Below are positions 31,146 to 49,412 of a DNA stretch of 64,000 bases, in pieces. The position numbers were made by a program, and so were the translations under genes. Position 1 is the stretch's first letter. Every line of letters begins with the position of its first letter. The notes beneath the pieces were generated by a model. It searched no databases. It was not told where the DNA came from and worked only from the letters and a program-made list of their open reading frames with translations. This stretch comes from Mycolicibacter virginiensis (GTDB lineage: Bacteria; Actinomycetota; Actinomycetes; Mycobacteriales; Mycobacteriaceae), in assembly GCF_022374935.2 (NCBI RefSeq), contig NZ_CP092430.2, positions 1,550,001 through 1,614,000 of the forward strand. Reading direction: 5' to 3'.

Positions 31146-32389
31146 GCGCCGCTACCCGCCCGGGCGCCATCCGGCTTGAAGACCTTGCCAACCCGGTGTT
31201 TCCCGAGGCCGCCGGCCCGATGCGCGACGGCCTGGCCGGTTACGGCGCGATCCTGCAACTCACACCGGAAGCCCTGCGGCAGGCCGCGATCGAACGAACA
31301 GGCCTCGACAACTGGGGCGACAATGGGTTCGCCGAACGCCTCGACGTGCTGTGCGGTTCGCTGAACGCCGAAGCAGACCTGTCCGGTGTCGGCCGGGCGA
31401 TGGCCTTCGAGCAACTGGTCGGCCACCTGGTCAACCGGCTTCGGCTGGAAGATCTGATCACGGCGAACCCCGAGATCGAGAGCGTCGAGATAGAACGCCC
31501 GATCATCATCTGCGGGCTGCCACGCACCGGCACCACCCACCTGCACAACCTGATCGCGGCCGACCCGGCACTGCGCTACCTGCCCTACTGGGAGAGCATG
31601 GAGCCGGTTCCCACGCCGGGCGAACCCGATCCACAGGCCAGGCGAGACCGCTGCGCCGTCGGCCTGGATCTGATCAATACCTCGATGCCCGAGTTCAAGC
31701 GCATGCATGACATGACCGTCGATCACGCGCATGAAGAGATTCAGCTGCTGGGCAACGACATCTCCGGAATGCTGTTCGAATGTAGTTACTACCTCCCGAC
31801 ATTCGCGCAGCACTACAAGACACACGATCAGAGCGCGTCGTACGCCTATATGAAGCGCACGTTGCAGGCACTGCAATGGCTGCGCGGAGGGACCCGCTGG
31901 GTGCTCAAATCGCCCCAGCATCTTGAGCAGTTCCCCGCGCTGTATGCGACCTTCCCCGACGCCACCTTCGTTGTCACCCATCGGGATCCGGTCGAGGTGA
32001 CGCGATCGATGGCCACCATGATCAGCTATGCGGCGCGCATGGCCTGCGACCGTCCCGATCCGGTCAAGATCTCGAAGTACTGGTTGGACCGGGCCGACGA
32101 CCTGCTCACCGGCTGCCTGCGCGACCGCGACGTGCTGCCGGCGGCACAGTCCGTCGACGTGCGGTTCGAGGACTTCATGGCCGATGAGGACGGGACCGTC
32201 GCTGCCATCTACGAGCTTGCGGGCCAGCCGCTGGACACCCGGGCCAAAGACGCGATGACGCAGTTCTGCATTGAGCACCCCCGCGGGCGCTACGGCGCGG
32301 TCGACTACCAGCCGGCCGACCTGGGGCTGGATGCCGACGAGGTGGCAAACCGCCTGCGCGCCTACCGAAATCAATTCGTCGCCGACTAA
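31142..32389 (+). CDS. Sulfotransferase family protein
   Basis: A 415-residue PAPS-dependent sulfotransferase. The 5'-phosphosulfate loop is IICGLPRTGTTHLHNL (~residues 120-135) and the 3'-phosphate-binding site VVTHRDPVEVTRSMA (~residues 278-292) is complete. Mycobacterial sulfotransferases act on trehalose, menaquinone or lipid hydroxyls; the acceptor here cannot be read from the sequence. GTG 31142 overlaps the stop of the DUF1214 gene, and the stop TAA touches the following gene's leader. Confidence 0.85.
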   Translation: MSAATRPGAIRLEDLANPVFPEAAGPMRDGLAGYGAILQLTPEALRQAAIERTGLDNWGDNGFAERLDVLCGSLNAEADLSGVGRAMAFEQLVGHLVNRLRLEDLITANPEIESVEIERPIIICGLPRTGTTHLHNLIAADPALRYLPYWESMEPVPTPGEPDPQARRDRCAVGLDLINTSMPEFKRMHDMTVDHAHEEIQLLGNDISGMLFECSYYLPTFAQHYKTHDQSASYAYMKRTLQALQWLRGGTRWVLKSPQHLEQFPALYATFPDATFVVTHRDPVEVTRSMATMISYAARMACDRPDPVKISKYWLDRADDLLTGCLRDRDVLPAAQSVDVRFEDFMADEDGTVAAIYELAGQPLDTRAKDAMTQFCIEHPRGRYGAVDYQPADLGLDADEVANRLRAYRNQFVAD

Positions 32390-32400
32390 TGGGAGAAACC

Positions 32401-33462
32401 ATGAATCAACCGATCTCCGCCGACGCCTGGGTCGCCACCGAACTCGGTGACCCGGCCAAAGTGCTGGCCCGCCAAAGCGTCGAGGTACGCGCGCCCGGAC
32501 CCGGCGAAATCCGGGTCGCGGTCAACGCGTTCTGCCTCAACTTCAACGACATCGACATCATCCAGGGCCGCTACACGACCCTGCCGCTGCAGCCGCCGTT
32601 CGTGCCCGGTATGGAGACCGTCGGAGTCGTGGAAAGCGCCGGCCAGGGCGCCGAGCATCTCATCGGTCGGCGCATCGTCGGCATCCCGGTGATGGCCTTC
32701 GGCGGGTACGCCTCCTACGCGATCGTCGACGCGGCGACCGCTCTGGACCTGCCGGACTGGGTCAGCGACGTCGACGGCGCCGCCCTGCACTACCCGTTCC
32801 ACCTGGGCTGGTTCGCGTTGCGCGAGCGTGGCCGCCTCAAGCCGGGGGAGACCCTGCTGGTGCACGCCGCCGCGGGTGGCACCGGATCCGGTGCTTTGGT
32901 GCTCGGCAAAGCGCTGGGCGCTCGGGTGATCGCCACCGCCGGGAGCGATGAGAAGGTCGAATTCTGCAAAGAACTCGGCGCCGACCATGCGATCAACTAC
33001 CGCAACGGTGACTGGGTTGAGCAGGTCGTGGAACTGACCTACGGCCGTGGTGTCGACGTCGCGTTCGACGCGGTCGGCGGGGACGTGGCGGTACAGACAT
33101 TCCGCTGTATGGGCCTCAACGGCCGGTACCTGATGGCGGGATTCGCCCAGGACATCGCGCTGGAGGACGGCGACTATCTCTCGCCACGACCCATCGCCTA
33201 CAGCAACTTCGATGTGTGCGGGGTATGCCTGGTCTACGTCAACGACCCGGTGGCGATCCGGCGCACCCTGGGCTTCAACTGGCCGGCCCGTTCGGAGGGG
33301 CTGGAAGCGCACGCGAAGATCCTGGAGTTGCTGCGTACCGGAAAGATCCGCACCGTCGTCGGTGCAGAGGTCCCCTGGGGTGATCTGCCGAATGCCTTGG
33401 AGCGCATGGCCGCCCGCCAGACCACCGGACGCCTGGTGGTCACCACCGACCGTCCCCGGTAG
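32401..33462 (+). CDS. MDR-family quinone oxidoreductase
   Basis: A 353-residue zinc-free medium-chain dehydrogenase/reductase (quinone oxidoreductase type). The N-terminal GroES-like domain is followed by the Rossmann loop HAAAGGTGSGALVLGKALGARVIA (~residues 158-181). ATG 32401 has GGGAGA directly before it; an ATG at 32389 overlapping the sulfotransferase stop is possible but has no ribosome site. Last gene of the TetR/DUF1214/sulfotransferase operon, probably supplying or removing a redox equivalent on the same substrate. Confidence 0.82.
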   Translation: MNQPISADAWVATELGDPAKVLARQSVEVRAPGPGEIRVAVNAFCLNFNDIDIIQGRYTTLPLQPPFVPGMETVGVVESAGQGAEHLIGRRIVGIPVMAFGGYASYAIVDAATALDLPDWVSDVDGAALHYPFHLGWFALRERGRLKPGETLLVHAAAGGTGSGALVLGKALGARVIATAGSDEKVEFCKELGADHAINYRNGDWVEQVVELTYGRGVDVAFDAVGGDVAVQTFRCMGLNGRYLMAGFAQDIALEDGDYLSPRPIAYSNFDVCGVCLVYVNDPVAIRRTLGFNWPARSEGLEAHAKILELLRTGKIRTVVGAEVPWGDLPNALERMAARQTTGRLVVTTDRPR

Positions 33463-33541: not shown

Positions 33542-36184
33542 ATGATTCAGTTGGGGCCGCCGCCCCCGGCGCCGGTCGTCAAACCCCGCCGCCGGGGTGG
33601 ACCGCGCGGGCCGGTGTTCCTGGGCGCCAACATCGTGGTGCTGGGCTGGCTGGCCCTCGCGGTCGCGTTGCTAGTTGCGCACAACGTCGTTGCGCATCCG
33701 ATCTGGCTGCCGGTGCACGCACTGCTGCTCGGCGCGGCCACCAACGCGATCGTGATCTGGTCGGGACACTTCACCACCACGCTGTGCCGGGTTCCCGACC
33801 CGCCGCAGTGGCACCTGGTGGCCAAACTGGCACTGCTCAACCTCGCCGTGATCGCGACCCTGGCCGGGGTGGCCTTCAACACCGAGGCCCTGACCGGGAT
33901 GGGTGGCACGGCCGTGGCCGTGGTGGCCGTCGCCCACGGTGCCGAGTTGATCGCGATGAAGAAGCGCGCCCTCTCGGCGCGCTTCGACTACCTGGTCGGT
34001 TTCTACCTGGCGGCCATCGCAGCGCTGCTGGCCGGATCGGCGACCGGTGCTGCCATGGCCTTCGGGGTGGCCCGCTGGTATGCGCGGCTGTGGACCACCC
34101 ACGTGCACGTGATGCTCTACGGGTGGATCGGGCTGACGGTGGTGGGCACCTTGTTCACCTTGTGGCCCACCACAATCCGAGAGAAGATCACCCCGCGCAG
34201 CTTTGCGATGGCCAGGCGTGCGCTGCCGACGCTGACGGTCGGGCTGACCGTCGCCGCCGCCGGTCTGCTCACCGACAGTTGGTGGCTGACCGCGGCAGGA
34301 CTGCTGGGTTATGCGGTCGGAGTCGGTCTGTCGATCGTCGGGCTGTGGCCAGGACGTAGCTTCACCGGACCGGCGGCCTGGATGCTGGTCGGCGCGACGG
34401 CCTGGCTCGGGGTCGCCGTCATGACCGAGACGATCCGTCTGATCGCCGCCCGCTCCGTCGACGTACTGCCCGCGTTCGTGGAGAACACCCTGTTGCCGCT
34501 GCTGGCGGTCGGATTCGTCGCCCAGATCTTGCTGGGCGCCCTGAGCCAGCTGCTGCCGATCCTGGTGGCCAACGGCCCACCCGTTCGCAAAGCCGTCATC
34601 AGCTACTTGGACCAGGGCTGGCAGGCCCGGGTGTGCGCGATCAACATCGCCGTGCCGTTGGTCGCCGGGCCGTGGCGGGCGCCGCTGCCGTTGATCGGCT
34701 GGGTGCTGGCCGCGGTCGCGGTCGCCAGCTTCGTCCTCCTGGCGCTGCGGCTCGCGCTGCCCGTGGCGCTGCGCGGCCCGCTCGATGTCGATGCGATCGC
34801 GCCGCATTCCCGAGCGGTCACCGGGGCGGTCGCCGCCGCCGCGGTGGCCGCGGTCGCCGCCGCGCTGGGGTTAGGTGTCGGCGGCTCGGCCCCCTCGGGC
34901 GCCGCCGGTGTCTCCGGTGAAGCCCGCACTGTCGACGTCACGCTGAAGAACATGCGGTTCTCCCCGGATGTGATCAATGTGCCGGCCGGAACCCGGCTGG
35001 TGCTGCGAGTCACCAACATCGACGGACTGCCGCACGACTTGCACGTCGACACCGGCGAGCACACCCCGCGGTTGAGTCGCGGCCAGACCGCGATGCTGGA
35101 TCTCGGTGCAGTGCACCAGGACCGGGAGGCGTGGTGCGACGTACCCGGCCACCGGGCCGCGGGCATGACGATGACGATCCACGCCGTCGGTGGTGCCCCG
35201 CGCCACGAGCACACCGGCGGGGGACATGGTGGCCTGCCCGCGCCGACGGTCTTGGACCTGGCCGCCGACCCGTCGCCAGGCTGGACGCCGCGCGACGCGG
35301 TGCTGGCACCGGCAAAGCCGGGAGTGCACCGGGTGGAACTGCGCGCCGTCGACCGAGAACTGGAGATCGCGCCCGGTCGCCGGGAGACCCGCTGGACCTT
35401 CGGCGGCGTCGAGCCGGCCCCGACCCTGCACGGCCGGGTCGGAGACACCTTCGAGATCACGCTGATCAACGACGCGACCATGGGCCACGGAATCGACTTT
35501 CACGCCGGAGCGCTCGCCCCGGACCAACCGATGCGCACCTTGGCGCCGGGGGAGCGGCTGGTCTACCGGTTCACGGCGCACCGGGCCGGCGCCTGGCTGT
35601 ACCACTGCAGCACCCCGCCGATGGCGCTGCACATCGCCAACGGCATGTACGGCGCCGTGATCATCGACCCGCCCGGGCTACCGGCAGTGGATCGGGAATA
35701 CGCGTTGGTCGGCGCCCAGCTCTATGCGAGCGCACCGGATTCCGACGCCCAAACCACGGCCATCCGCGCCGGCCAGCCCGACGGGTGGATGTTCAACGGG
35801 ACCGCGGCCCAGTACATGCACGCCCCGCTGCCGGCCCGCACCGGTGAACGGGTGCGCGTCTGGGTGGTCAACGCGGGTCCGGGCGACTCGATCGCATTCC
35901 ACGTCGTCGGGACGCAGTTCGACACCGTCTACAAAGAGGGCGCCTGGCTGCTGCGGCCCGGCGGTTCAGCGCGGCTCGACGGAGGAGGGGCGAGGCTGGG
36001 ACCGCCGCATGAGCCGAGTGACCCGTTGGCACCGGCGGGGGGAGCGCAGGCCCTCGACCTGGCGCCGGCCCAGGGCGGCTTCGTCGAGCTCACCTTCCCT
36101 GAACCGGGCCACTATCCGTTCATGGATCACGACATGCGGCACGCCGAGAACGGGGCGCACGGCATCTTCGCAGTGACGGGTTAG
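33542..36184 (+). CDS. Copper nitrite reductase (NirK-type) fused to a membrane domain and a cupredoxin
   Basis: An 880-residue three-part protein. Residues ~25-445 have about 12 hydrophobic segments with His pairs (H59, H76, H187/H189) resembling NnrS/heme-copper type membrane proteins. Residues ~460-550 form a plastocyanin-like domain with type 1 copper ligands H498, C532, H537 and M542. Residues ~600-880 are the two-domain nitrite reductase: type 1 copper H649, C689, H697, M702; type 2 copper H654, H688, H787; catalytic D652 and H760 both present. All active-site residues seem intact, so reduction of nitrite to nitric oxide outside the membrane with electrons from the membrane and cupredoxin parts is expected. 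No strong ribosome site precedes ATG 33542. Confidence 0.82.
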   Translation: MIQLGPPPPAPVVKPRRRGGPRGPVFLGANIVVLGWLALAVALLVAHNVVAHPIWLPVHALLLGAATNAIVIWSGHFTTTLCRVPDPPQWHLVAKLALLNLAVIATLAGVAFNTEALTGMGGTAVAVVAVAHGAELIAMKKRALSARFDYLVGFYLAAIAALLAGSATGAAMAFGVARWYARLWTTHVHVMLYGWIGLTVVGTLFTLWPTTIREKITPRSFAMARRALPTLTVGLTVAAAGLLTDSWWLTAAGLLGYAVGVGLSIVGLWPGRSFTGPAAWMLVGATAWLGVAVMTETIRLIAARSVDVLPAFVENTLLPLLAVGFVAQILLGALSQLLPILVANGPPVRKAVISYLDQGWQARVCAINIAVPLVAGPWRAPLPLIGWVLAAVAVASFVLLALRLALPVALRGPLDVDAIAPHSRAVTGAVAAAAVAAVAAALGLGVGGSAPSGAAGVSGEARTVDVTLKNMRFSPDVINVPAGTRLVLRVTNIDGLPHDLHVDTGEHTPRLSRGQTAMLDLGAVHQDREAWCDVPGHRAAGMTMTIHAVGGAPRHEHTGGGHGGLPAPTVLDLAADPSPGWTPRDAVLAPAKPGVHRVELRAVDRELEIAPGRRETRWTFGGVEPAPTLHGRVGDTFEITLINDATMGHGIDFHAGALAPDQPMRTLAPGERLVYRFTAHRAGAWLYHCSTPPMALHIANGMYGAVIIDPPGLPAVDREYALVGAQLYASAPDSDAQTTAIRAGQPDGWMFNGTAAQYMHAPLPARTGERVRVWVVNAGPGDSIAFHVVGTQFDTVYKEGAWLLRPGGSARLDGGGARLGPPHEPSDPLAPAGGAQALDLAPAQGGFVELTFPEPGHYPFMDHDMRHAENGAHGIFAVTG

Positions 36185-36341: not shown

Positions 36342-37436
36342 ATGGGCCAGCTGCCAGGCATTACCGGTCCGCAGGTCGCCCTGGAGCCTGTGCAGCTGAT
36401 CGCGCCGGATGGGGCGCCTACCGCCGAGAATCGCTATAGCCGGGACCTGCCCGAAGAGACCCTCTGTTGGCTCTACGAGCTGATGGTGCTCACCCGTGAA
36501 CTCGACACCGAGCTGGTCAACCTGCAACGCCAGGGCGAGCTGGGGCTCTACGCGTCGTGCCGCGGCCAGGAGGCCGCCCAGGTCGGCGCCGCCGCGTGCC
36601 TGCGCAAATCCGACTGGCTGTTCCCGCAGTACCGCGAGCTGGGAGTCTTCGTCACCCGGGGCATCCCGCCGTGGCACCTCGCGGCCGCCTGGCGTGGAAC
36701 CTGGAACGGCGGCCTGGAGTTCACCGAGAAGAACTGCGCGCCGATCTCGATTCCGATCGGCACCCAGACGCTGCATGCGGTGGGCGCGGCGATGGCCGCC
36801 CAACGCCTGGCCGAGGATTCCGTCACCGTCGCCTTCACCGGCGACGGCGCCACCAGCGAGGGCGACGTACACGAGGCACTCAATTTCGCCGCTGTGTTCA
36901 CCGCCCCGTGTGTGTTCTACGTGCAGAACAACCAGTGGGCAATCTCGGTGCCGCTGCGCAAGCAGACCGCCGCCGTCTCGCTGGCGCACAAGGCAATCGG
37001 CTACGGCATGCCGGGCATCCGGGTGGACGGCAACGATCCGCTGGCCTGCTATGCGGTGACGGCCGAGGCCGCCGACCGGGCGCGACACGGTGGTGGGCCG
37101 AGCCTGATCGAGGCCGTCACTTACCGGCTCGGCCCGCACACCACCTCCGATGATCCGACCCGCTACCGCAGTGACGCCGAAGTTGACCAGTGGGCATCAC
37201 TGGACCCGATCCCGCGCTACCGCACCTATTTACGCAATATCGGCGTGTGGTCGCAGCGCCTAGAGGACCGGGTCGATGCTCGGGCCAAGCGCGTACGCAG
37301 CGAGCTGCGAGATGCCACGGTCGGGGCCGCCGATGCCGACATCGACGAAGTATTCACCTCCGTCTACGCCGACATCACCTCGGATCTGCAGCAGCAGCGT
37401 GCCGCGCTGCGCGCCGAATTGGGCAGGGGGCGCTGA
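36342..37436 (+). CDS. bkdA: Branched-chain ketoacid dehydrogenase E1 alpha subunit BkdA
   Basis: A 364-residue E1 alpha (Rv2497c/PdhA type). The thiamine diphosphate motif GDGATSEGDVHEALNFAAVF followed by VQNNQWAIS is complete (~residues 167-200). The phosphorylation-loop region is short, as in bacterial BCKDH. With BkdB and BkdC it would decarboxylate the 2-ketoacids of Leu, Ile and Val to branched acyl-CoAs. Despite the M. tuberculosis name pdhA, the link to leucine genes makes the branched-chain role more likely. ATG 36342 follows AAGGAGG. TGATG overlap with bkdB. Confidence 0.92.
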   Translation: MGQLPGITGPQVALEPVQLIAPDGAPTAENRYSRDLPEETLCWLYELMVLTRELDTELVNLQRQGELGLYASCRGQEAAQVGAAACLRKSDWLFPQYRELGVFVTRGIPPWHLAAAWRGTWNGGLEFTEKNCAPISIPIGTQTLHAVGAAMAAQRLAEDSVTVAFTGDGATSEGDVHEALNFAAVFTAPCVFYVQNNQWAISVPLRKQTAAVSLAHKAIGYGMPGIRVDGNDPLACYAVTAEAADRARHGGGPSLIEAVTYRLGPHTTSDDPTRYRSDAEVDQWASLDPIPRYRTYLRNIGVWSQRLEDRVDARAKRVRSELRDATVGAADADIDEVFTSVYADITSDLQQQRAALRAELGRGR

Positions 37437-38485
37437 TGACCCAGATCCTCGAACCACCTACCCGCGCGGCGACCCCTACCGCGGCGGCCGGCTCCAGCAC
37501 CCGCACCGAAGAGCTGACCATGGTGGCGGCGCTCAACCGGGCATTGCGCGATGCGATGGACACCGATCTCAAGGTCCTGGTGTTCGGCACCGACGTCGGC
37601 GTGCAGGGCGGGGTTTTCCGGGTGACCGATGGTCTGGCCGAAACCTTCGGTGAGCAACGCTGTTTCGACACACCGCTGGCGGAATCGGCGGTGATCGGCA
37701 TCGCCATCGGTTTGGCGATTCGCGGCTTCGTCCCGGTTCCGGAGATCCAGTTCGACGGATTCAGCTACCCGGCATTGGACCAGGTGGTCAGCCACCTGGC
37801 CAAGTACCGGACCCGGACTCGCGGCGCGGTGTCGATGCCGGTGACCGTGCGCATCCCGTCGTTCGGTGGAATCGGTGCGGCCGAGCATCATTCGGAATCC
37901 ACCGAAACCTATTGGGCGCACACCGCCGGACTGAAGGTGGTGGTGCCCGCCGATCCGTCGGACGCCTACTGGCTACTGCGCCACGCGATCGCCACTCCCG
38001 ACCCGGTGATGTTCCTTGAGCCCAAGCGGCGGTACTGGGCCCGCGGGCCCGTCGACACCGAACACCCGGCGCCGGGCATCGGGTGTGCTGCCGTTCGCCG
38101 GTCCGGTACCGACGTCACGGTGCTCACCTATGGCGGCGGGGTGGCCACCGCGCTGTCCGCGGCCGACATCGGCGCGCAACAGCACGGGTGGAGCCTGGAG
38201 GTGGTCGACCTGCGCTCGCTGGTACCACTCGACTTCGACACCGTCGCGGCGTCGGTGCGGCGCACCGGGCGATGCGTGGTGCTGCACGAGGGTCCGCGCA
38301 ACCTCGGCTACGGCGCCGAACTGGCTGCGCGCATCTCCGAGGAACTGTTCTACGAGTTGGAGGCACCGGTATTGCGCGCCAGCGGATTCGACACCCCGTA
38401 TCCACCGGCCCGGTTGGAACGCCTGTGGCTGCCCGGCCCCGATCGGTTGCTGGACTACGTGCAGCGCGTCCTAGAGGCGCCGTGA
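37436..38485 (+). CDS. bkdB: Branched-chain ketoacid dehydrogenase E1 beta subunit BkdB
   Basis: A 349-residue transketolase-type E1 beta. Conserved [39 protein letters not shown] and the C-terminal transketolase domain ([30 protein letters not shown]) are intact. The ATG lies inside the bkdA stop. A polar, Ala/Thr-rich N-terminal extension of ~25 residues is likely disordered. Equal to Rv2496c. Confidence 0.92.
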
Positions 38486-39669
38486 GTACCGAGACAGTCC
38501 AGACCTTCACCGTCCCCGATCTCGGGGAGGGCCTTGAAGAGGTGACGGTGACCAGCTGGAACGTCGCCGTCGGTGATCAGATCGAACTCAACCAGGTGTT
38601 GTGCTCGGTGGAGACCGCCAAAGCCGAGGTGGAGATCCCCAGCCCGTATGCCGGCCGGGTGGTCGAGCTGGGCGGCGCGGTGGGAGACGTACTCGCGGTC
38701 GGGGCGCCCCTGGTACGTATCGACACCGGTACAACGGCCGAGCGCCCAGCCGCGCCCGCCGGGCGCGCCCCGGTGCTGGTCGGCTACGGCGCCGACGACA
38801 CCTTCGACACCAGCCGCCGCGCCTGCACGTCCACCAGCGGGCGGCCCAAGGCCAAGCCGGGTGCCCGCAAGCTCGCCGCCGAGTTGGGCGTCGACTTGAG
38901 CCGGGTGCCGCCCGGACCGAGCGGCGTGATCACCCCCGATGGTGTGCGAGCAGCCGCCGGCCAGGCGGCTCCCGACGGTGAACTTCGTCCGCCCAGCCCG
39001 GTGCAGGCGGCCATGGCCGAGCGGATGACACTGTCCCGCAGCAAGATCCCCGACGCGCACGCCAGCGTGCAGGTAGACGGCACCAACCTGCTGCAGCTGC
39101 GGGATCGGCTCGTCGAGACAGGCGGCGCGACGATCACCCCATTCGTGCTGATCCTGCGGCTGTTGGTCATCGCCCTGACTCGCCACCCGGTGCTCAACGC
39201 CACCTGGGTCGAAGCGCCGCAGGGCCCGATGATCCGCACCCACCACGGCGTGCATCTGGGTTTCGGGGTGGCCGCGCCCCGGGGCCTGCTGGTGCCGGTG
39301 GTGTTCGACGCGCACCGCAAAACCACTCGCGAACTCGCCGACACCGTGGCGCGGCTGATCGCCGAGGCCCGGGCCGGCACCCTCAAGCCGGCCGAGCTGC
39401 AGGGATCGACGTTCACGGTCTCCAACTTCGGGGCACTCGGCCTCGACGACGGGGTGCCGGTGATCAATTACCCGGAGGCGGCCATCCTGGGGATCGGTTC
39501 GCTCAAACCACGGCCGGTGGCGGTGGACGACACCGTCGTCGTGCGTCCACAGCTGACCCTGACGTGCGCATTCGACCACCGCGTCGCCGACGGCGCGCAG
39601 ATCGCCGAATTCCTGTGTGCGCTTCGCGATCTGATTGAAGAACCCGAGATCGCGCTACTGGATCTGTAG
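38482..39669 (+). CDS. bkdC: Branched-chain ketoacid dehydrogenase E2 (lipoyl acyltransferase) BkdC
   Basis: A 395-residue E2. Lipoyl domain residues 6-80 with the lipoylated K47 in [10 protein letters not shown]; then a Pro/Ala linker, a peripheral-subunit-binding domain (~residues 125-160, [18 protein letters not shown]) and the catalytic domain with active-site DHRVADG near the end. One lipoyl domain, as in the Rv2495c BkdC protein. The E3 partner (Lpd) is not in the window, as expected. GTG start overlaps the bkdB stop. Confidence 0.93.
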
Positions 39670-41366: not shown

Positions 41367-41441
41367 AATGCGGGTCCAGTTTATCCGCTGGTAGAGGTAG
41401 ATCCGCTCCGACCGAGTAAAGCAGCTACCCGGATTCATGTG

Positions 41442-41726
41442 GCGGTTCCAGCTTCGGCTCTCCTGCGTTGAGCCTCGCTAAACCGCGGGGCTGATGCGGC
41501 GGTTCCAGCTTCGGCTCTCCTTCGTCGAACCTCGCTAAACCGCGGGGCTGATGTGGCGGTTCCAGCTTCGGCTCTCCTTCGTCGAACCTCGCTAAACCGC
41601 CGGGCTGATGTGGCGGTTCCAGCTTCGGCTCTCCTTCGTCGAACCTCGCTAAACCGCCGGGCTGATGCGGCGGTTCCAGCTTCGGCTCTCCTTCGTCGAA
41701 CCTCGCTAAACCGCCGGTTTCCAATT
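41442..41726. repeat. 57-bp minisatellite, five copies
   Basis: Five copies of a 57-base unit start at 41442, 41499, 41556, 41613 and 41670; the last ends partway. Each begins GCGGTTCCAGCTTCGGCTCTCC and closes with CGCTAAACCGC, so GCGGTT and AACCGC at the two ends make short inverted repeats. Copies differ at only a few bases except the first, which has more changes. The unit is a multiple of three, and the minus strand reads LARFDEGEPKLEPPHQP(R/G)G in each, but no start or product is supported. Similar in size to mycobacterial MIRU loci. The 187 bases to the next gene show nothing else. Confidence 0.85.
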
Positions 41727-43362: not shown

Positions 43363-44993
43363 CCGACGACGAAAAGTCTCGGCCGCCGCGCGACATGCGG
43401 CTGCCCGGATCGGTGGCCGAGATCGCGGCGAGCCCGCCCGGTCCCAAGATCGGCGCGTTCTTCGATCTCGACGGCACCCTGGTGGCCGGCTTCACCGCCG
43501 TGATTCTCACCCGGGAGCGGTTCCGCAGCCGCGACATGGGGCTGGGGGAGCTGTTCGGGATGATCCAGGCCGGGCTCAACCATCAGCTCGGCCGCATCGA
43601 GTTCGAGGAGCTCATCAACACCGCGTCCTCGGCACTGCGTGGCCGTTCCATCAGTGATCTCGACGAGATCGGTGAGCGGCTGTTCGTCCAGAAGATCGCC
43701 AAACGCATCTACCCCGAAATGCGCGAAGTGGTGCGGGCCCACCAGGCGCGCGGGCACACCGTGGTGCTGAGCTCTTCGGCGCTGACCATCCAAGTCGAGC
43801 CGGTGGCCCGTTTCCTGGGCATCACCAACACCCTCACCAATGCCTTCGTCACCGACGAGGACGGTGTGCTCACCGGCGAGGTAGTCGAACCGATCCTGTG
43901 GGGGCCGGGCAAGGCCGCCGCGGTGCAGAAATTCGCCGCCGAACACGACATCGACCTGCAGGACAGCTACTTCTACGCCGACGGGGACGAGGACGTCGCG
44001 CTGATGCATCTGGTGGGCAATCCGCGACCGACGAACCCCGAGGGCAAGATGGCCTCGGTCGCCCGCAAGCGCGGCTGGCCGATCCTGCAGTTCAGCAGCC
44101 GCGGCAGCGGGGTCGTCGGCCAACTGCGGAACCTGGCCGGCCTCAGCTCGATCGTCCCGGTGGGCGCCGGCGCGATCGGACTGGGCCTGCTGAGCGGCAG
44201 CCGGCGCCGAGGCGTCAACTTCTTCACCGCACTGTTCCCGCAGGTGCTGTTGGGCCTCAATGGCGTGCGGCTCAACGTGATCGGCAAAGAGAACCTCACC
44301 GCAACCCGGCCGGCGGTGTTCATCTTCAACCACCGCAATCAGGTCGACCCGGTGATCACCGCCTCGCTCGTGCGTGACAACTGGATCAGCGTCGGCAAAC
44401 GCGAACTGGAGAGAGACCCGATCGCCGGTCCGCTGGGAAAGCTGACCGAGATGGTGTTCATCGACCGGGACGACGCGGCAGCGGCCGTGGAGTCTCTACA
44501 ACAGGTCGAAGAACGCGCCAAGCGCGGTTTGTCGGTGGTGATCGCGCCCGAAGGGACCCGGGTGGACACCACCGGGGTGGGCCCGTTCAAGAAGGGTCCG
44601 TTCCGGCTCGCAATGGCGGCCGGCATACCGATCGTGCCGGTGATCATCCGCAACGCCGAGGTGGTCGCCGCCCGGGACTCGATGAGCGCTCACCCGGGCA
44701 CCGTCGACGTCGCGGTGTTCCCGGCGATTTCGGTCGAGGACTGGACGGTCGACACGCTGCCCGAGCGGATCGCGGAGGTCCGCCAGCTGTACCTGGACAC
44801 CCTGGCCGACTGGCCGGTCGACGAGTTGCCGGCCTTCTCGCCCAAGCCCGCGGCCAAGAAGGCGCCGGCCAAGAAGGCCCCCGCCAAGAAGGCCCCGGCC
44901 AAAAAGATTGCCGCCAAAAAGGCGCCGGCCAAGAAGGCCGTCGCCAAGAATGCCCCGGCCAAGAAGCCGCCGGCCCCGAAGGGGGAGCAGTGA
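43359..44993 (+). CDS. plsC: Bifunctional HAD phosphatase/1-acylglycerol-3-phosphate acyltransferase PlsC
   Basis: A 544-residue fusion (Rv2483c type). Residues 30-235 are a SerB-like HAD phosphatase with the DxDGT motif D36-L-D38-G-T. Residues ~300-490 are a PlsC acyltransferase with NHRNQVDP (His-x4-Asp, near residue 325) and EGTR. After residue ~497 comes a Lys/Ala/Pro tail made of six AKKAP-like repeats ending in PKGEQ. It would add the second acyl chain of phosphatidic acid; the HAD half could act on phosphatidate or a related ester. ATG overlaps the previous stop; GTG of plsB2 overlaps its own stop. Confidence 0.9.
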
Positions 44994-47344: not shown

Positions 47345-47411
47345 CGGGGCAGGCCACAACGTCGCCCGCCTGGTATGCGGCGCGGTGGGCGCGCACCATA
47401 CGCTGGGAGCC

Positions 47412-49412
47412 ATGACGGCTACTTCGGCGACCCGCGGCCGCGCGGCGATCTTGGTGCCGATGCTGGCCGGGTTGGCGATCCTCGCCGGGTGCATCGCCGC
47501 CGGGATCGGGGCGCTGTCGTTGGCCGATGCCCTGACCGCGACCGGCCTGCCCGACCCGGGCCCGGTGACCACGCTGGGACTGCCGTTCGTGCGGGCGGCC
47601 GGCGAGATGGCCGCGGCATTGGCGGTGGGATCGTTTCTGCTCGCGGCGTTCCTGGTGCCGCCGCAGGAAAGCGGGGTCCTTGACGTCGCCGGTTACCGTG
47701 CGCTGCGGTTGGGCACCGTGGCGGCGGGAGCCTGGGCGGTGTGTGCCGCGCTGCTGGTTCCGTTGACGATCTCCGATGTCTCGGGGCACCCGTTGTCGGA
47801 GTTCCTCGACCCGGCGACGGCCTGGTCGTTCGCCGGGCTGGTCGACACCGCGTCGGCCTGGCGGTGGACCGCGTTGGTGGCCGCGTTGGTGTCACTGGCG
47901 AGCCTGCCCGTGCTGCGCTGGTCCTGGACACCGGTGCTGCTGGCGGGATCGCTGCTGACCTTGATCCCGTTGGGGTTGACCGGGCATTCGGCCGCCGGCG
48001 GGTCACACGACCTGGCCACCAACAGCCTGCTCATCCACCTGATCGCCGCGGGCCTGTGGGCCGGCGGCCTGCTGGCGCTGCTGGTCCACGCGATCCGCGG
48101 CGGGGAACACGCCGCCCTGGCGGCACGGCGCTTCTCCACCGTGGCGCTGTGGTGCTTCGTGGCGATGGGCCTGTCCGGAGTGCTCAACGCGCTGGTTCGC
48201 CTGACCCTCGCCGATCTGTTGACCACGCCGTACGGCCAATTGGTGGTGGCCAAGTTCGTCGCCCTGTGTGTGCTCGGCGCCCTCGGTGCCTGGCAGCGGC
48301 GCCGCGGGGTGGCCGCACTGCAGGAAGACCCGAACAAACGCGGCCCGCTGATCCGCCTGGCGCTGACCGAGGCCGTCGTCTTCGCGCTGACCTTCGGCGT
48401 CGCAGTGGGGCTGGGCCGCACCCCGCCACCCCCGCCGACGGTGCTCAACCCGTCGGTCCCGATGGTCAAGATCGGCTACGACTTCGCCGGCCCGCCGACC
48501 GTGGCCCGGATCCTGTTCGACTGGCGATATGACGTCGTCTTCGGCACCGCCGCGATAGTCCTGGCCGGCGTGTATCTGGCCGGGGTGCTGCGGCTGCGCC
48601 GCCGCGGTGACGCCTGGCCCGCGGGCCGCACCACCGCCTGGATGCTGGGCTGTCTGACCCTGCTGTTCGCCACCTCGTCGGGCACCGGTCGCTACATGCC
48701 GGCGATGTTCAGCATGCACATGGCCGTGCACATGCTGCTGTCGATGCTGGTGCCGATCCTGCTGGTGCTGGGCGGGCCGACCACACTGGCGCTACGGGCG
48801 CTGCCGGTGGCCGGTCGCGGCGAGCCGCCCGGAATGCGGGAATGGCTGCTGGCCGCGCTGCACAGCCGGGTCTCGCGGGTCCTCACCAATCCGATCATCG
48901 CGGCGGTGATCTTCGTCGTCGGCTTTTACGGGCTCTATTTCAGCAGCCTGTTCGACTCGATAGCCGGCAGTCACGCGGGGCACCTCGCGATGAATATCCA
49001 CTTCATCCTCAGCGGCTACCTCTTCTATTGGGTCGTGATCGGCGTGGACCCCACCCCACGGCCCATCTCGCCGCTGGCCAAGCTGGCGGTGGTGTTCGCC
49101 TCGCTGCCACTGCACGGCTTCTTCGGGGTCTTCCTGATGGGGATGCACAAGGTGCTCGGCGAGTGGTTCTACGGTGCGCTGGGCCTGTCCTGGCACACCG
49201 ACTTGGCCGGCGACCAGCACCTGGGCGGCGGCATCACCTGGTCGGCAGGCGAATTGCCCCTGCTCATGGTGATGATCGCGCTGCTAGTGCAGTGGCATCG
49301 CAGTGACCGGCGCACCGCCAAGCGGCTTGACCGCGCCGCTGACCGTGATGACGACGCCGAGCTGGCCGCCTACAACGCGATGCTGGCCGAGATGGCCCGT
49401 CGCGACGGGTGA
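47412..49412 (+). CDS. CopD-CtaG fusion membrane protein
   Basis: A 666-residue protein with about 14 membrane segments. The first half (~residues 20-330) is CopD-like with H-S-A-A-G-G and H-L-I-A-A-G-L-W-A-G-G motifs. The second half (~residues 370-620) is the caa3-type CtaG copper-delivery family with SMHMAVHMLLSMLVPI, NIHFILSGYLFYWVVIGVDP and LGEWFYGALGLSWH, whose His and Met residues bind copper. It resembles Rv0102. Probably helps to supply copper to cytochrome oxidase, and it might also serve the nitrite reductase at 33542. ATG 47412 has GGGAG just before it. Ends convergent with the TetR gene. Confidence 0.85.
   Translation: MTATSATRGRAAILVPMLAGLAILAGCIAAGIGALSLADALTATGLPDPGPVTTLGLPFVRAAGEMAAALAVGSFLLAAFLVPPQESGVLDVAGYRALRLGTVAAGAWAVCAALLVPLTISDVSGHPLSEFLDPATAWSFAGLVDTASAWRWTALVAALVSLASLPVLRWSWTPVLLAGSLLTLIPLGLTGHSAAGGSHDLATNSLLIHLIAAGLWAGGLLALLVHAIRGGEHAALAARRFSTVALWCFVAMGLSGVLNALVRLTLADLLTTPYGQLVVAKFVALCVLGALGAWQRRRGVAALQEDPNKRGPLIRLALTEAVVFALTFGVAVGLGRTPPPPPTVLNPSVPMVKIGYDFAGPPTVARILFDWRYDVVFGTAAIVLAGVYLAGVLRLRRRGDAWPAGRTTAWMLGCLTLLFATSSGTGRYMPAMFSMHMAVHMLLSMLVPILLVLGGPTTLALRALPVAGRGEPPGMREWLLAALHSRVSRVLTNPIIAAVIFVVGFYGLYFSSLFDSIAGSHAGHLAMNIHFILSGYLFYWVVIGVDPTPRPISPLAKLAVVFASLPLHGFFGVFLMGMHKVLGEWFYGALGLSWHTDLAGDQHLGGGITWSAGELPLLMVMIALLVQWHRSDRRTAKRLDRAADRDDDAELAAYNAMLAEMARRDG

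What the first reader, a model, noticed from the sequence alone, without database searches (positions are those of the whole stretch)
33542..36184. Single-chain nitrite reductase: membrane domain, cupredoxin and NirK with intact active sites
One gene encodes an electron-input membrane part, a type 1 copper carrier and a complete NirK, with D652, H760 and all three type 2 copper histidines. It could make nitric oxide in an organism otherwise not seen as a denitrifier. It sits in the inserted block, and no nitric oxide reductase is nearby, so NO may serve as a signal or be handled by another enzyme. A CopD-CtaG copper supplier lies 11 kb away.
Basis: partly seen in the sequence, partly recalled or inferred. 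Interest (0 to 1): 0.75.

Follow-up and report, generated by a model that had tools for sequence, protein, structure and literature searches.

The report
Membrane-anchored copper nitrite reductase, actinobacterial type
This gene encodes a membrane-anchored copper enzyme of a type already known from actinobacteria that probably turns nitrite into nitric oxide; what is still open, and newly testable, is whether its unexplained membrane part feeds it electrons through haem.

Summary
The ORF is real: 880 aa at 33542-36184 (+), with 13 predicted membrane helices, a type 1 copper cupredoxin and a NirK domain. Copper ligands and the catalytic Asp are kept in the window and 79 related loci (H863 in 79 of 80). 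One residue is misassigned: the catalytic His is H787, not H760.
The architecture is in print (PMC4770552: actinobacterial NirK with a 400-aa membrane domain 'of unknown function' plus cupredoxin).
The host is a Mycolicibacter-type mycobacterium. The same genome has narG and a qNOR-like NO reductase 1.9 Mb away. In 148 genomes of its genus, 24 of 28 with NirK have such a reductase, against 26 of 120 others. Outside Mycolicibacter the gene is often beside narGHJI. Within the genus it is syntenic, not a recent insert.
New here: histidines at helix ends placed as candidate haem-b ligands (H59/H187, outer side), and distant actinobacteria with the parts as neighbouring separate genes. I infer a single-chain quinol:nitrite oxidoreductase. 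Kinship of the membrane part to haem-copper oxidases is weakly supported only; no structure could be predicted.
Verdict: new member of a known kind, interest 0.4.

The parts
33542..36184 (+). nirK-type gene, 880 aa: membrane part + cupredoxin + NirK
33623..34879 (+). membrane part (aa 28-446), 13 predicted helices, N-terminus in, C-terminus out
   Evidence: hydropathy and K+R counts over 80 aligned sequences; helix borders set by hand
33716..33718 (+). H59, outer end of helix 2; candidate haem ligand
   Evidence: 79 of 79 with a letter there, 156 of 156, 6 of 6 distant forms
33767..33769 (+). H76, inner end of helix 2; candidate haem ligand or quinone-site residue
   Evidence: 78 of 79; 139 of 156, with 15 Y and 2 Q; 6 of 6 distant forms
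33935..33937 (+). H132, inner end of helix 4
   Evidence: 79 of 79; 155 of 156; but 0 of 6 distant forms as aligned
34100..34102 (+). H187, outer end of helix 6; candidate haem ligand
   Evidence: 80 of 80; 155 of 156; 6 of 6 distant forms
34904..35191 (+). N-terminal cupredoxin domain (aa 455-550) with type 1 Cu ligands H498, C532, H537, M542
   Evidence: PF13473; ligands 80 of 80
35309..36181 (+). NirK domain (aa 590-880): type 1 Cu H649/C689/H697/M702; type 2 Cu H654/H688/H863; D652 and H787 catalytic
35900..35902 (+). H787, the catalytic His (not H760)
   Evidence: alignment with 2dv6, 3wi9, 3wkq; 80 of 80
35957..36040 (+). stretch (about aa 806-833) holding the 57-bp dispersed-repeat unit inserted in frame (19 aa extra against M. 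icosiumassiliensis)
   Evidence: alignment with 11 relatives; 70 matches in the genome, itself included
32389..33462 (+). zinc alcohol dehydrogenase, upstream neighbour in 7 of 17 Mycolicibacter loci
36342..39669 (+). pyruvate/2-oxoacid dehydrogenase E1-alpha, E1-beta, E2: conserved downstream genes, no evident link to nitrite
47385..49412 (+).
   Evidence: PF05425 + PF09678; no match at E 1e-30 within the stored flanks of any of the 80 fetched nirK loci

Best explanation
It is an actinobacterial NirK that reduces nitrite to NO on the outer face of the membrane. Shown by sequence: intact type 1/type 2 copper ligands, D652 and H787; an intact extra cupredoxin; a 13-helix topology that puts both copper parts outside; retention with narG and a qNOR-like gene. 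Inferred: the membrane part binds haem b, at least one between H59 and H187 near the outer face. It oxidises menaquinol and passes electrons to the cupredoxin copper, then to the NirK type 1 copper, then to the type 2 site. NarG supplies nitrite and the qNOR encoded elsewhere in the genome turns the NO into N2O, giving partial denitrification under oxygen limitation.
For: Ligands kept in window + 79 loci; solved NirKs align across the active site; dN/dS 0.08-0.14 in the NirK domain against nine Mycolicibacter loci. Thirteen-helix topology: K+R per loop 2.1-4.5 in the seven inside loops and 0.0-1.5 in the seven outside ones. H59, H132 and H187 in at least 155 of 156 membrane parts; H59/H76/H187 in 6 of 6 distant split or stand-alone forms. 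Same three modules as neighbouring separate genes (L162: NirK, cupredoxin, membrane protein, Rrf2 regulator; L160 and L158 in part fused). Two or more narGHJI gene clusters within the stored flanks in 22 of 63 non-Mycolicibacter loci; representatives score over NCBIfam cut-off as narG, narH, narJ, narI. narG in the own genome. qNOR-like gene in the own genome. PF22085-type reductase in 24 of 28 NirK genomes against 26 of 120 others, Fisher p = 3.7e-10, shared descent not corrected for.
Against: No structure could be predicted, so haem ligation and the electron path are unproven. PMC4770552 (passage) reports that the N-terminal cupredoxin of such NirKs is too far from the core for effective transfer, and that an N-terminal T1Cu mutant was more active than wild type. 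H76 is Tyr or Gln in 17 of 156 and H132 is absent from all 6 distant forms as aligned, so a second haem is doubtful. Only 2 of the 7 full-length fusion genomes in the phylum-wide draw have PF22085, and PMC10999283 reports Nor absent in many cases among NirK clades 2-4, which include the actinobacterial one. NCBIfam's NirK model is matched below its cut-off (140.9 against 296.3 bits), and NCBIfam names no family for the qNOR-like protein. Covariation did not help.
Confidence: 0.55

Rival explanations
1. The membrane part is only an anchor or a copper-handling module; electrons reach the cupredoxin from a cytochrome c or the bcc complex, as for ordinary NirKs.
For: Some genus members carry a NirK match with no membrane part in its open frame (G340, and one of two copies in G359), and PMC4770552 says not all actinobacterial NirKs have it. 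A small, weakly CopD-like protein follows nirK directly in 21 of 63 non-Mycolicibacter loci.
Against: An anchor needs one helix, not 13 with conserved histidines at helix ends. The CopD-like gene was not found in the window's own genome (a search without a positive control).
Confidence: 0.25
2. The enzyme makes NO as a signal or to remove toxic nitrite rather than for respiration.
For: Nor is absent in many carriers of NirK clades 2-4 (PMC10999283); 4 of 28 NirK genomes in the genus lack PF22085.
Against: This genome has a qNOR-like gene and narG, and co-occurrence in the genus is strong.
Confidence: 0.15
3. The membrane part is a remote haem-copper-oxidase relative with its own chemistry (for example NO or O2 reduction), so the chain does two reactions.
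For: 15 of 54 membrane parts match Pfam COX1 weakly, best 1.5e-5; 9 of the 120 listed relatives carry a precomputed COX1 match, and those nine rescanned give 1e-7 to 2e-5 over much the same stretch.
Against: All below Pfam's cut-off (best 31.6 against 34.8 bits); those nine were chosen because they had a match. The window's own sequence has none. hhalign probabilities are 0.8 (qNOR set), 3, 9, 10 and 29 percent against oxidase sets, with controls at 0.1-0.7, and the registers of these alignments disagree. The conserved histidines do not include an evident CuB set (my reading).
Confidence: 0.06
4. It is a multicopper oxidase-like enzyme with a substrate other than nitrite.
For: Many database names are 'multicopper oxidase domain-containing protein'; the TIGR02376 cut-off is not met.
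Against: Asp/His pair and three type 2 histidines as in NirK; narGHJI neighbours. A paper whose title reports a dissimilatory nitrite reductase purified from Streptomyces thioluteus is cited in PMC10999283 (reference line; the paper itself is not held, and I do not know its architecture).
Confidence: 0.04

Closest known systems
Actinobacterial membrane NirK (Propionibacterium acnes type; PMC4770552; probably within Clade 3 of PMC10999283, not tested by a tree here)
   Same: About 900 aa, 400-aa membrane domain, cupredoxin with CX4HX4M, NirK core (paper passages; here)
   Different: No difference in architecture found. The window copy carries 19 extra residues from a dispersed 57-bp repeat
Hyphomicrobium denitrificans-type NirK with N-terminal cupredoxin (2dv6; organism of the entry recalled)
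   Same: N-terminal cupredoxin plus NirK; best solved-structure match, E 1.1e-40
   Different: 2dv6 is 447 aa and the match covers query 480-803, without the 13-helix part
Geobacillus NirK / Neisseria AniA (3wi9, 1kbv; source organisms recalled)
   Same: Catalytic core, FHV stretch around the catalytic His (PMC4770552)
   Different: The best stretches cover only query 592-811; chains are about 324-327 aa
Haem-copper oxidase subunit I (COX1) and NnrS
   Same: Twelve helices before the thirteenth, histidines at helix ends (the comparison with these families' structure is recalled); weak COX1 matches
   Different: Below family cut-offs; NnrS matched by 1 of 54 at E 0.12

Membership tests
Copper nitrite reductase (NirK) | Type 1 Cu ligands His-Cys-His-Met in domain 1 | tested here: met
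   H649, C689, H697, M702, 80 of 80; aligned with solved NirKs
Copper nitrite reductase (NirK) | Type 2 Cu ligands, three His | tested here: met
   H654, H688 80 of 80; H863 79 of 80
Copper nitrite reductase (NirK) | Catalytic Asp and His | tested here: met
   D652 and H787, 80 of 80; H760 rejected, 57 of 80
Copper nitrite reductase (NirK) | Homotrimer, with type 2 Cu between subunits | not testable with these tools
   structure prediction switched off
Copper nitrite reductase (NirK) | Nitrite to NO activity | not testable with these tools
   needs the bench
NCBIfam TIGR02376 equivalog (Cu_nitrite_red), a naming model | Score over curated cut-off | tested here: not met
   140.9 against 296.3 bits; so not filed under this equivalog, only under NirK in the wider, ligand-based sense
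Actinobacterial membrane NirK | Membrane domain + cupredoxin CX4HX4M + NirK in one chain | tested here: met
   described in PMC4770552
Actinobacterial NirK Clade 3 (PMC10999283) | Placement in that clade of the NirK tree | not tested
   no tree was built; inferred from actinobacterial origin
Haem-copper oxidase subunit I | Pfam COX1 match over cut-off | tested here: not met
   window: none; best relative 31.6 against 34.8 bits
NnrS | Pfam NnrS match over cut-off | tested here: not met
   1 of 54 at E 0.12; no NnrS match in the own genome (no control rang)
Quinol dehydrogenase with haem b | Haem b ligands and quinol oxidation | tested here: inconclusive
   conserved histidines and topology fit; covariation analysis inconclusive, Neff about 105 for 388 columns

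The most novel reading that the evidence does not exclude
The membrane part is an undescribed b-haem quinol-oxidising module, a remote offshoot of the haem-copper-oxidase fold without its catalytic centre. It was recruited to cupredoxin enzymes both as a neighbouring gene and by fusion, so that this protein is a self-sufficient quinol:nitrite oxidoreductase in one chain: quinol, haem b, type 1 Cu, type 1 Cu, type 2 Cu.
Probability: 0.35. Interest if true: 0.7.

Novelty: new member of a known kind. Interest (0 to 1): 0.4.

Why it matters
How actinobacterial NirKs receive electrons is open as far as I could see: the membrane domain is called 'of unknown function' in PMC4770552. Candidate haem ligands, a definite topology and natural split versions make it testable with a few mutants. 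If the membrane part oxidises quinol, many actinobacterial enzymes, environmental mycobacterial ones included, would couple the quinone pool directly to NO, and with qNOR to N2O, without cytochrome c. That bears on soil NO and N2O budgets. For this genome it also shows that absence of a neighbouring NO reductase is not absence from the genome.

Tried and rejected
H760 as catalytic His: rejected. Recent insertion: rejected within Mycolicibacter as sampled; base composition of nirK (GC 0.711, GC3 0.876; window GC 0.671) is near that of CopD-CtaG (0.704, 0.899). CopD-CtaG as copper supplier: no match at E 1e-30 in the stored flanks (up to 8 kb) of any of 80 loci; Mycolicibacter loci do not reach 11 kb, so it cannot be excluded there. 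NnrS as relative of the membrane part: no support. Profile comparison of the membrane part with A-type oxidases, qNOR/NorB and divergent oxidases: weak, undecided. Covariation for helix contacts: inconclusive. DosR-like box in the window: none (pattern recalled). PDB search with the membrane profile: one hit at E 0.3, not credible. CopD-like downstream gene in the own genome: not found, no positive control. Searches whose listings showed no earlier proposal of a haem b or quinol function for this domain: (open-licence papers only; passages read, no paper read whole); absence from print is not claimed.

Rows dropped or chosen: L053 was left out of the 80-row ligand count because no single ORF of 600 aa or more passed the filter. 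A1 uses 39 of the 120 listed proteins, chosen for spread. A2 uses the window and 53 of the 80 loci. The 156-row set is A2 plus 102 stand-alone or partial proteins of 385-460 aa among P0122-P0237. The dN/dS table uses 11 loci, nine of them Mycolicibacter. Gene clusters come from a crude ORF caller of mine; only representatives were checked, and the NarK-like and flavohaemoglobin representatives score below their NCBIfam cut-offs (203.3 against 311.7; 405.5 against 432). Five genus genomes with weak or broken NirK-like hits (G306, G321, G354, G373, G415) were counted as NirK-negative; counted as positive, the table would read 26 of 33 against 24 of 115.

Full report
What is there. The window holds an intact gene at 33542-36184 (+) of 880 codons. 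Pfam finds a cupredoxin-like domain at residues 458-523 and multicopper-oxidase/plastocyanin-type domains at 610-711; NCBIfam's NirK model aligns at 589-806 with E 5.6e-41 but below its naming cut-off. Solved NirKs match with E down to 1.1e-40. The window lies in a 4.98-Mb single-contig genome whose closest fetched relatives at this locus are Mycolicibacter records at up to 93 percent identity.

Active sites. In an alignment of the window with 79 related loci, H498, C532, H537, M542, H649, D652, H654, H688, C689, H697, M702 and H787 are kept in 80 of 80, and H863 in 79 of 80. H787 lies in the FHV stretch that aligns with solved NirKs and belongs to the motif reported around the active-site His. 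Against nine Mycolicibacter loci dN/dS is 0.08-0.14 for the NirK domain and 0.09-0.27 for the membrane part.

Membrane part. No Pfam family is found in the window's own residues 1-425. Hydropathy gives 12 helices plus a thirteenth before the cupredoxin (borders set by hand). Mean K+R per loop is 2.1-4.5 in the seven loops predicted inside and 0.0-1.5 in the seven predicted outside. The N-terminus is therefore predicted inside and both copper parts outside, where known NirKs work. H59 and H187 sit at the outer ends of helices 2 and 6, H76 and H132 at the inner ends of helices 2 and 4. Over 156 membrane parts H59 is kept in 156, H132 and H187 in 155 each, and H76 in 139 (15 Tyr, 2 Gln). In six distant split or stand-alone forms H59, H76 and H187 are kept 6 of 6, but H132 in none as aligned. 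I read this as one better-supported candidate haem site on the outer side (H59/H187) and a doubtful second one.

Possible ancestry. Fifteen of 54 membrane parts match Pfam COX1 (best 1.5e-5), against at most three for any other family. Nine of the 120 listed relatives carry a precomputed COX1 match; I rescanned those nine, chosen for that reason, and one without it: the nine score 1e-7 to 2e-5 over much the same stretch, all under the cut-off, and the tenth has none. Profile-profile comparison gave 0.8 percent with the qNOR/NorB set, 3, 9, 10 and 29 percent with other oxidase sets, and 0.7, 0.1 and 0.1 percent with NarK, NarI and the CopD-like set; the registers disagree. A remote tie to haem-copper oxidases is possible, not shown.

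Modularity. Distant actinobacterial genomes encode the parts separately. In L162 the order is NirK, a 126-aa cupredoxin, the membrane protein and an Rrf2-family regulator on one strand. L160 has NirK with a C-terminal cupredoxin, the membrane protein and Rrf2. L158 has cupredoxin-NirK followed by the membrane protein. The two Rrf2 proteins carry three closely spaced cysteines, as Fe-S sensors of the NsrR kind do (recalled). Fusion and separate neighbouring genes together argue that the three parts act together. A stand-alone case without NirK in its 6-kb stretch also exists (L163).

Context. In 63 loci outside Mycolicibacter, 22 have at least two narGHJI-type gene clusters in the stored flanks (up to 8 kb), 18 have the narH cluster, 17 a NarK-like transporter, 17 a hemerythrin and 8 a flavohaemoglobin (crude ORF calls and clusters; representatives checked). 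In Mycolicibacter the pyruvate-dehydrogenase-type genes lie downstream in 15 of 15 testable loci, after 0.8-4.4 kb in six of them (two more loci end at the contig end), and a sulfotransferase upstream in 15 of 17. Nothing there points to nitrite, but the gene is a resident of the genus, not a local insert.

Where the NO goes. The same chromosome encodes a 796-aa protein with the qNOR make-up (PF22085 + COX1; bases 3489770-3492160; NCBIfam names no family for it) and a full narG. In 148 genomes of the genus, PF22085 is found in 50 and strong NirK hits (over 380 bits) in 28. They overlap in 24, against 26 of the other 120 (Fisher p = 3.7e-10, uncorrected for descent). Against this, in a draw of 296 genomes of the phylum only 7 have a full-length fusion and only 2 of those 7 have PF22085, and PMC10999283 (passages) says Nor is absent in many cases among NirK clades 2-4. 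So the partnership holds for this genus, not for the phylum.

Known or new. PMC4770552 (passages) already describes the P. acnes NirK with a 400-aa membrane domain of unknown function and a cupredoxin, and says all actinobacterial NirKs in its set have the cupredoxin. A protein search scored 8000 candidates and kept 3366 at E 1e-3; of the 120 listed, 115 besides the query cover 94 percent or more of it. The window gene is a member of that kind. What is added here is the membrane topology, the candidate haem ligands, the split gene sets, the genus-level tie to a qNOR-like gene and the correction of the catalytic His.

Side finding. The window copy carries 19 extra residues after the catalytic His, matching one 57-bp unit of a dispersed and tandem repeat with 70 matches in the genome, itself included. 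The eleven relatives compared lack it.

Noticed in passing
35957-36040, and 41437-41717: A 57-bp repeat unit (70 matches in the genome, many in tandem; 4.9 tandem copies at 41437-41717) is inserted in frame in the nirK coding sequence as 19 extra residues; it resembles mycobacterial interspersed repeats (resemblance recalled). P0001 residues about 804-840 also hit other places, many in open frames, in this genome and in G314, G363, G376, G391 and G420.
   Followed up: partly
21 of the 63 non-Mycolicibacter loci among L019-L083, e.g. L059 10651-11085: A 145-150-aa, weakly CopD-like membrane protein of unknown role directly follows fused nirK; it is a candidate accessory factor and was not found in the window's own genome.
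   Followed up: partly
L045 10986-12044 and 15 other loci: A cluster found within the stored flanks of nirK in 16 of 63 loci; one representative is an Acg/Rv3131-family FMN oxidoreductase, another matched nitroreductase weakly.
   Followed up: no
G373 (genus scan): NirK-like pieces in three places, one with a stop inside, in a genome that has a PF22085 hit: looks like a decayed nirK.
   Followed up: no
P0121: Database protein in which another hydrophobic stretch of about 340 aa, without a Pfam match, precedes a membrane part of the NirK type.
   Followed up: no
44844-44975: Lysine/alanine-rich tandem repeat at the C-terminus of the HAD-acyltransferase protein, with weak histone-H1-like matches.
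   Followed up: no
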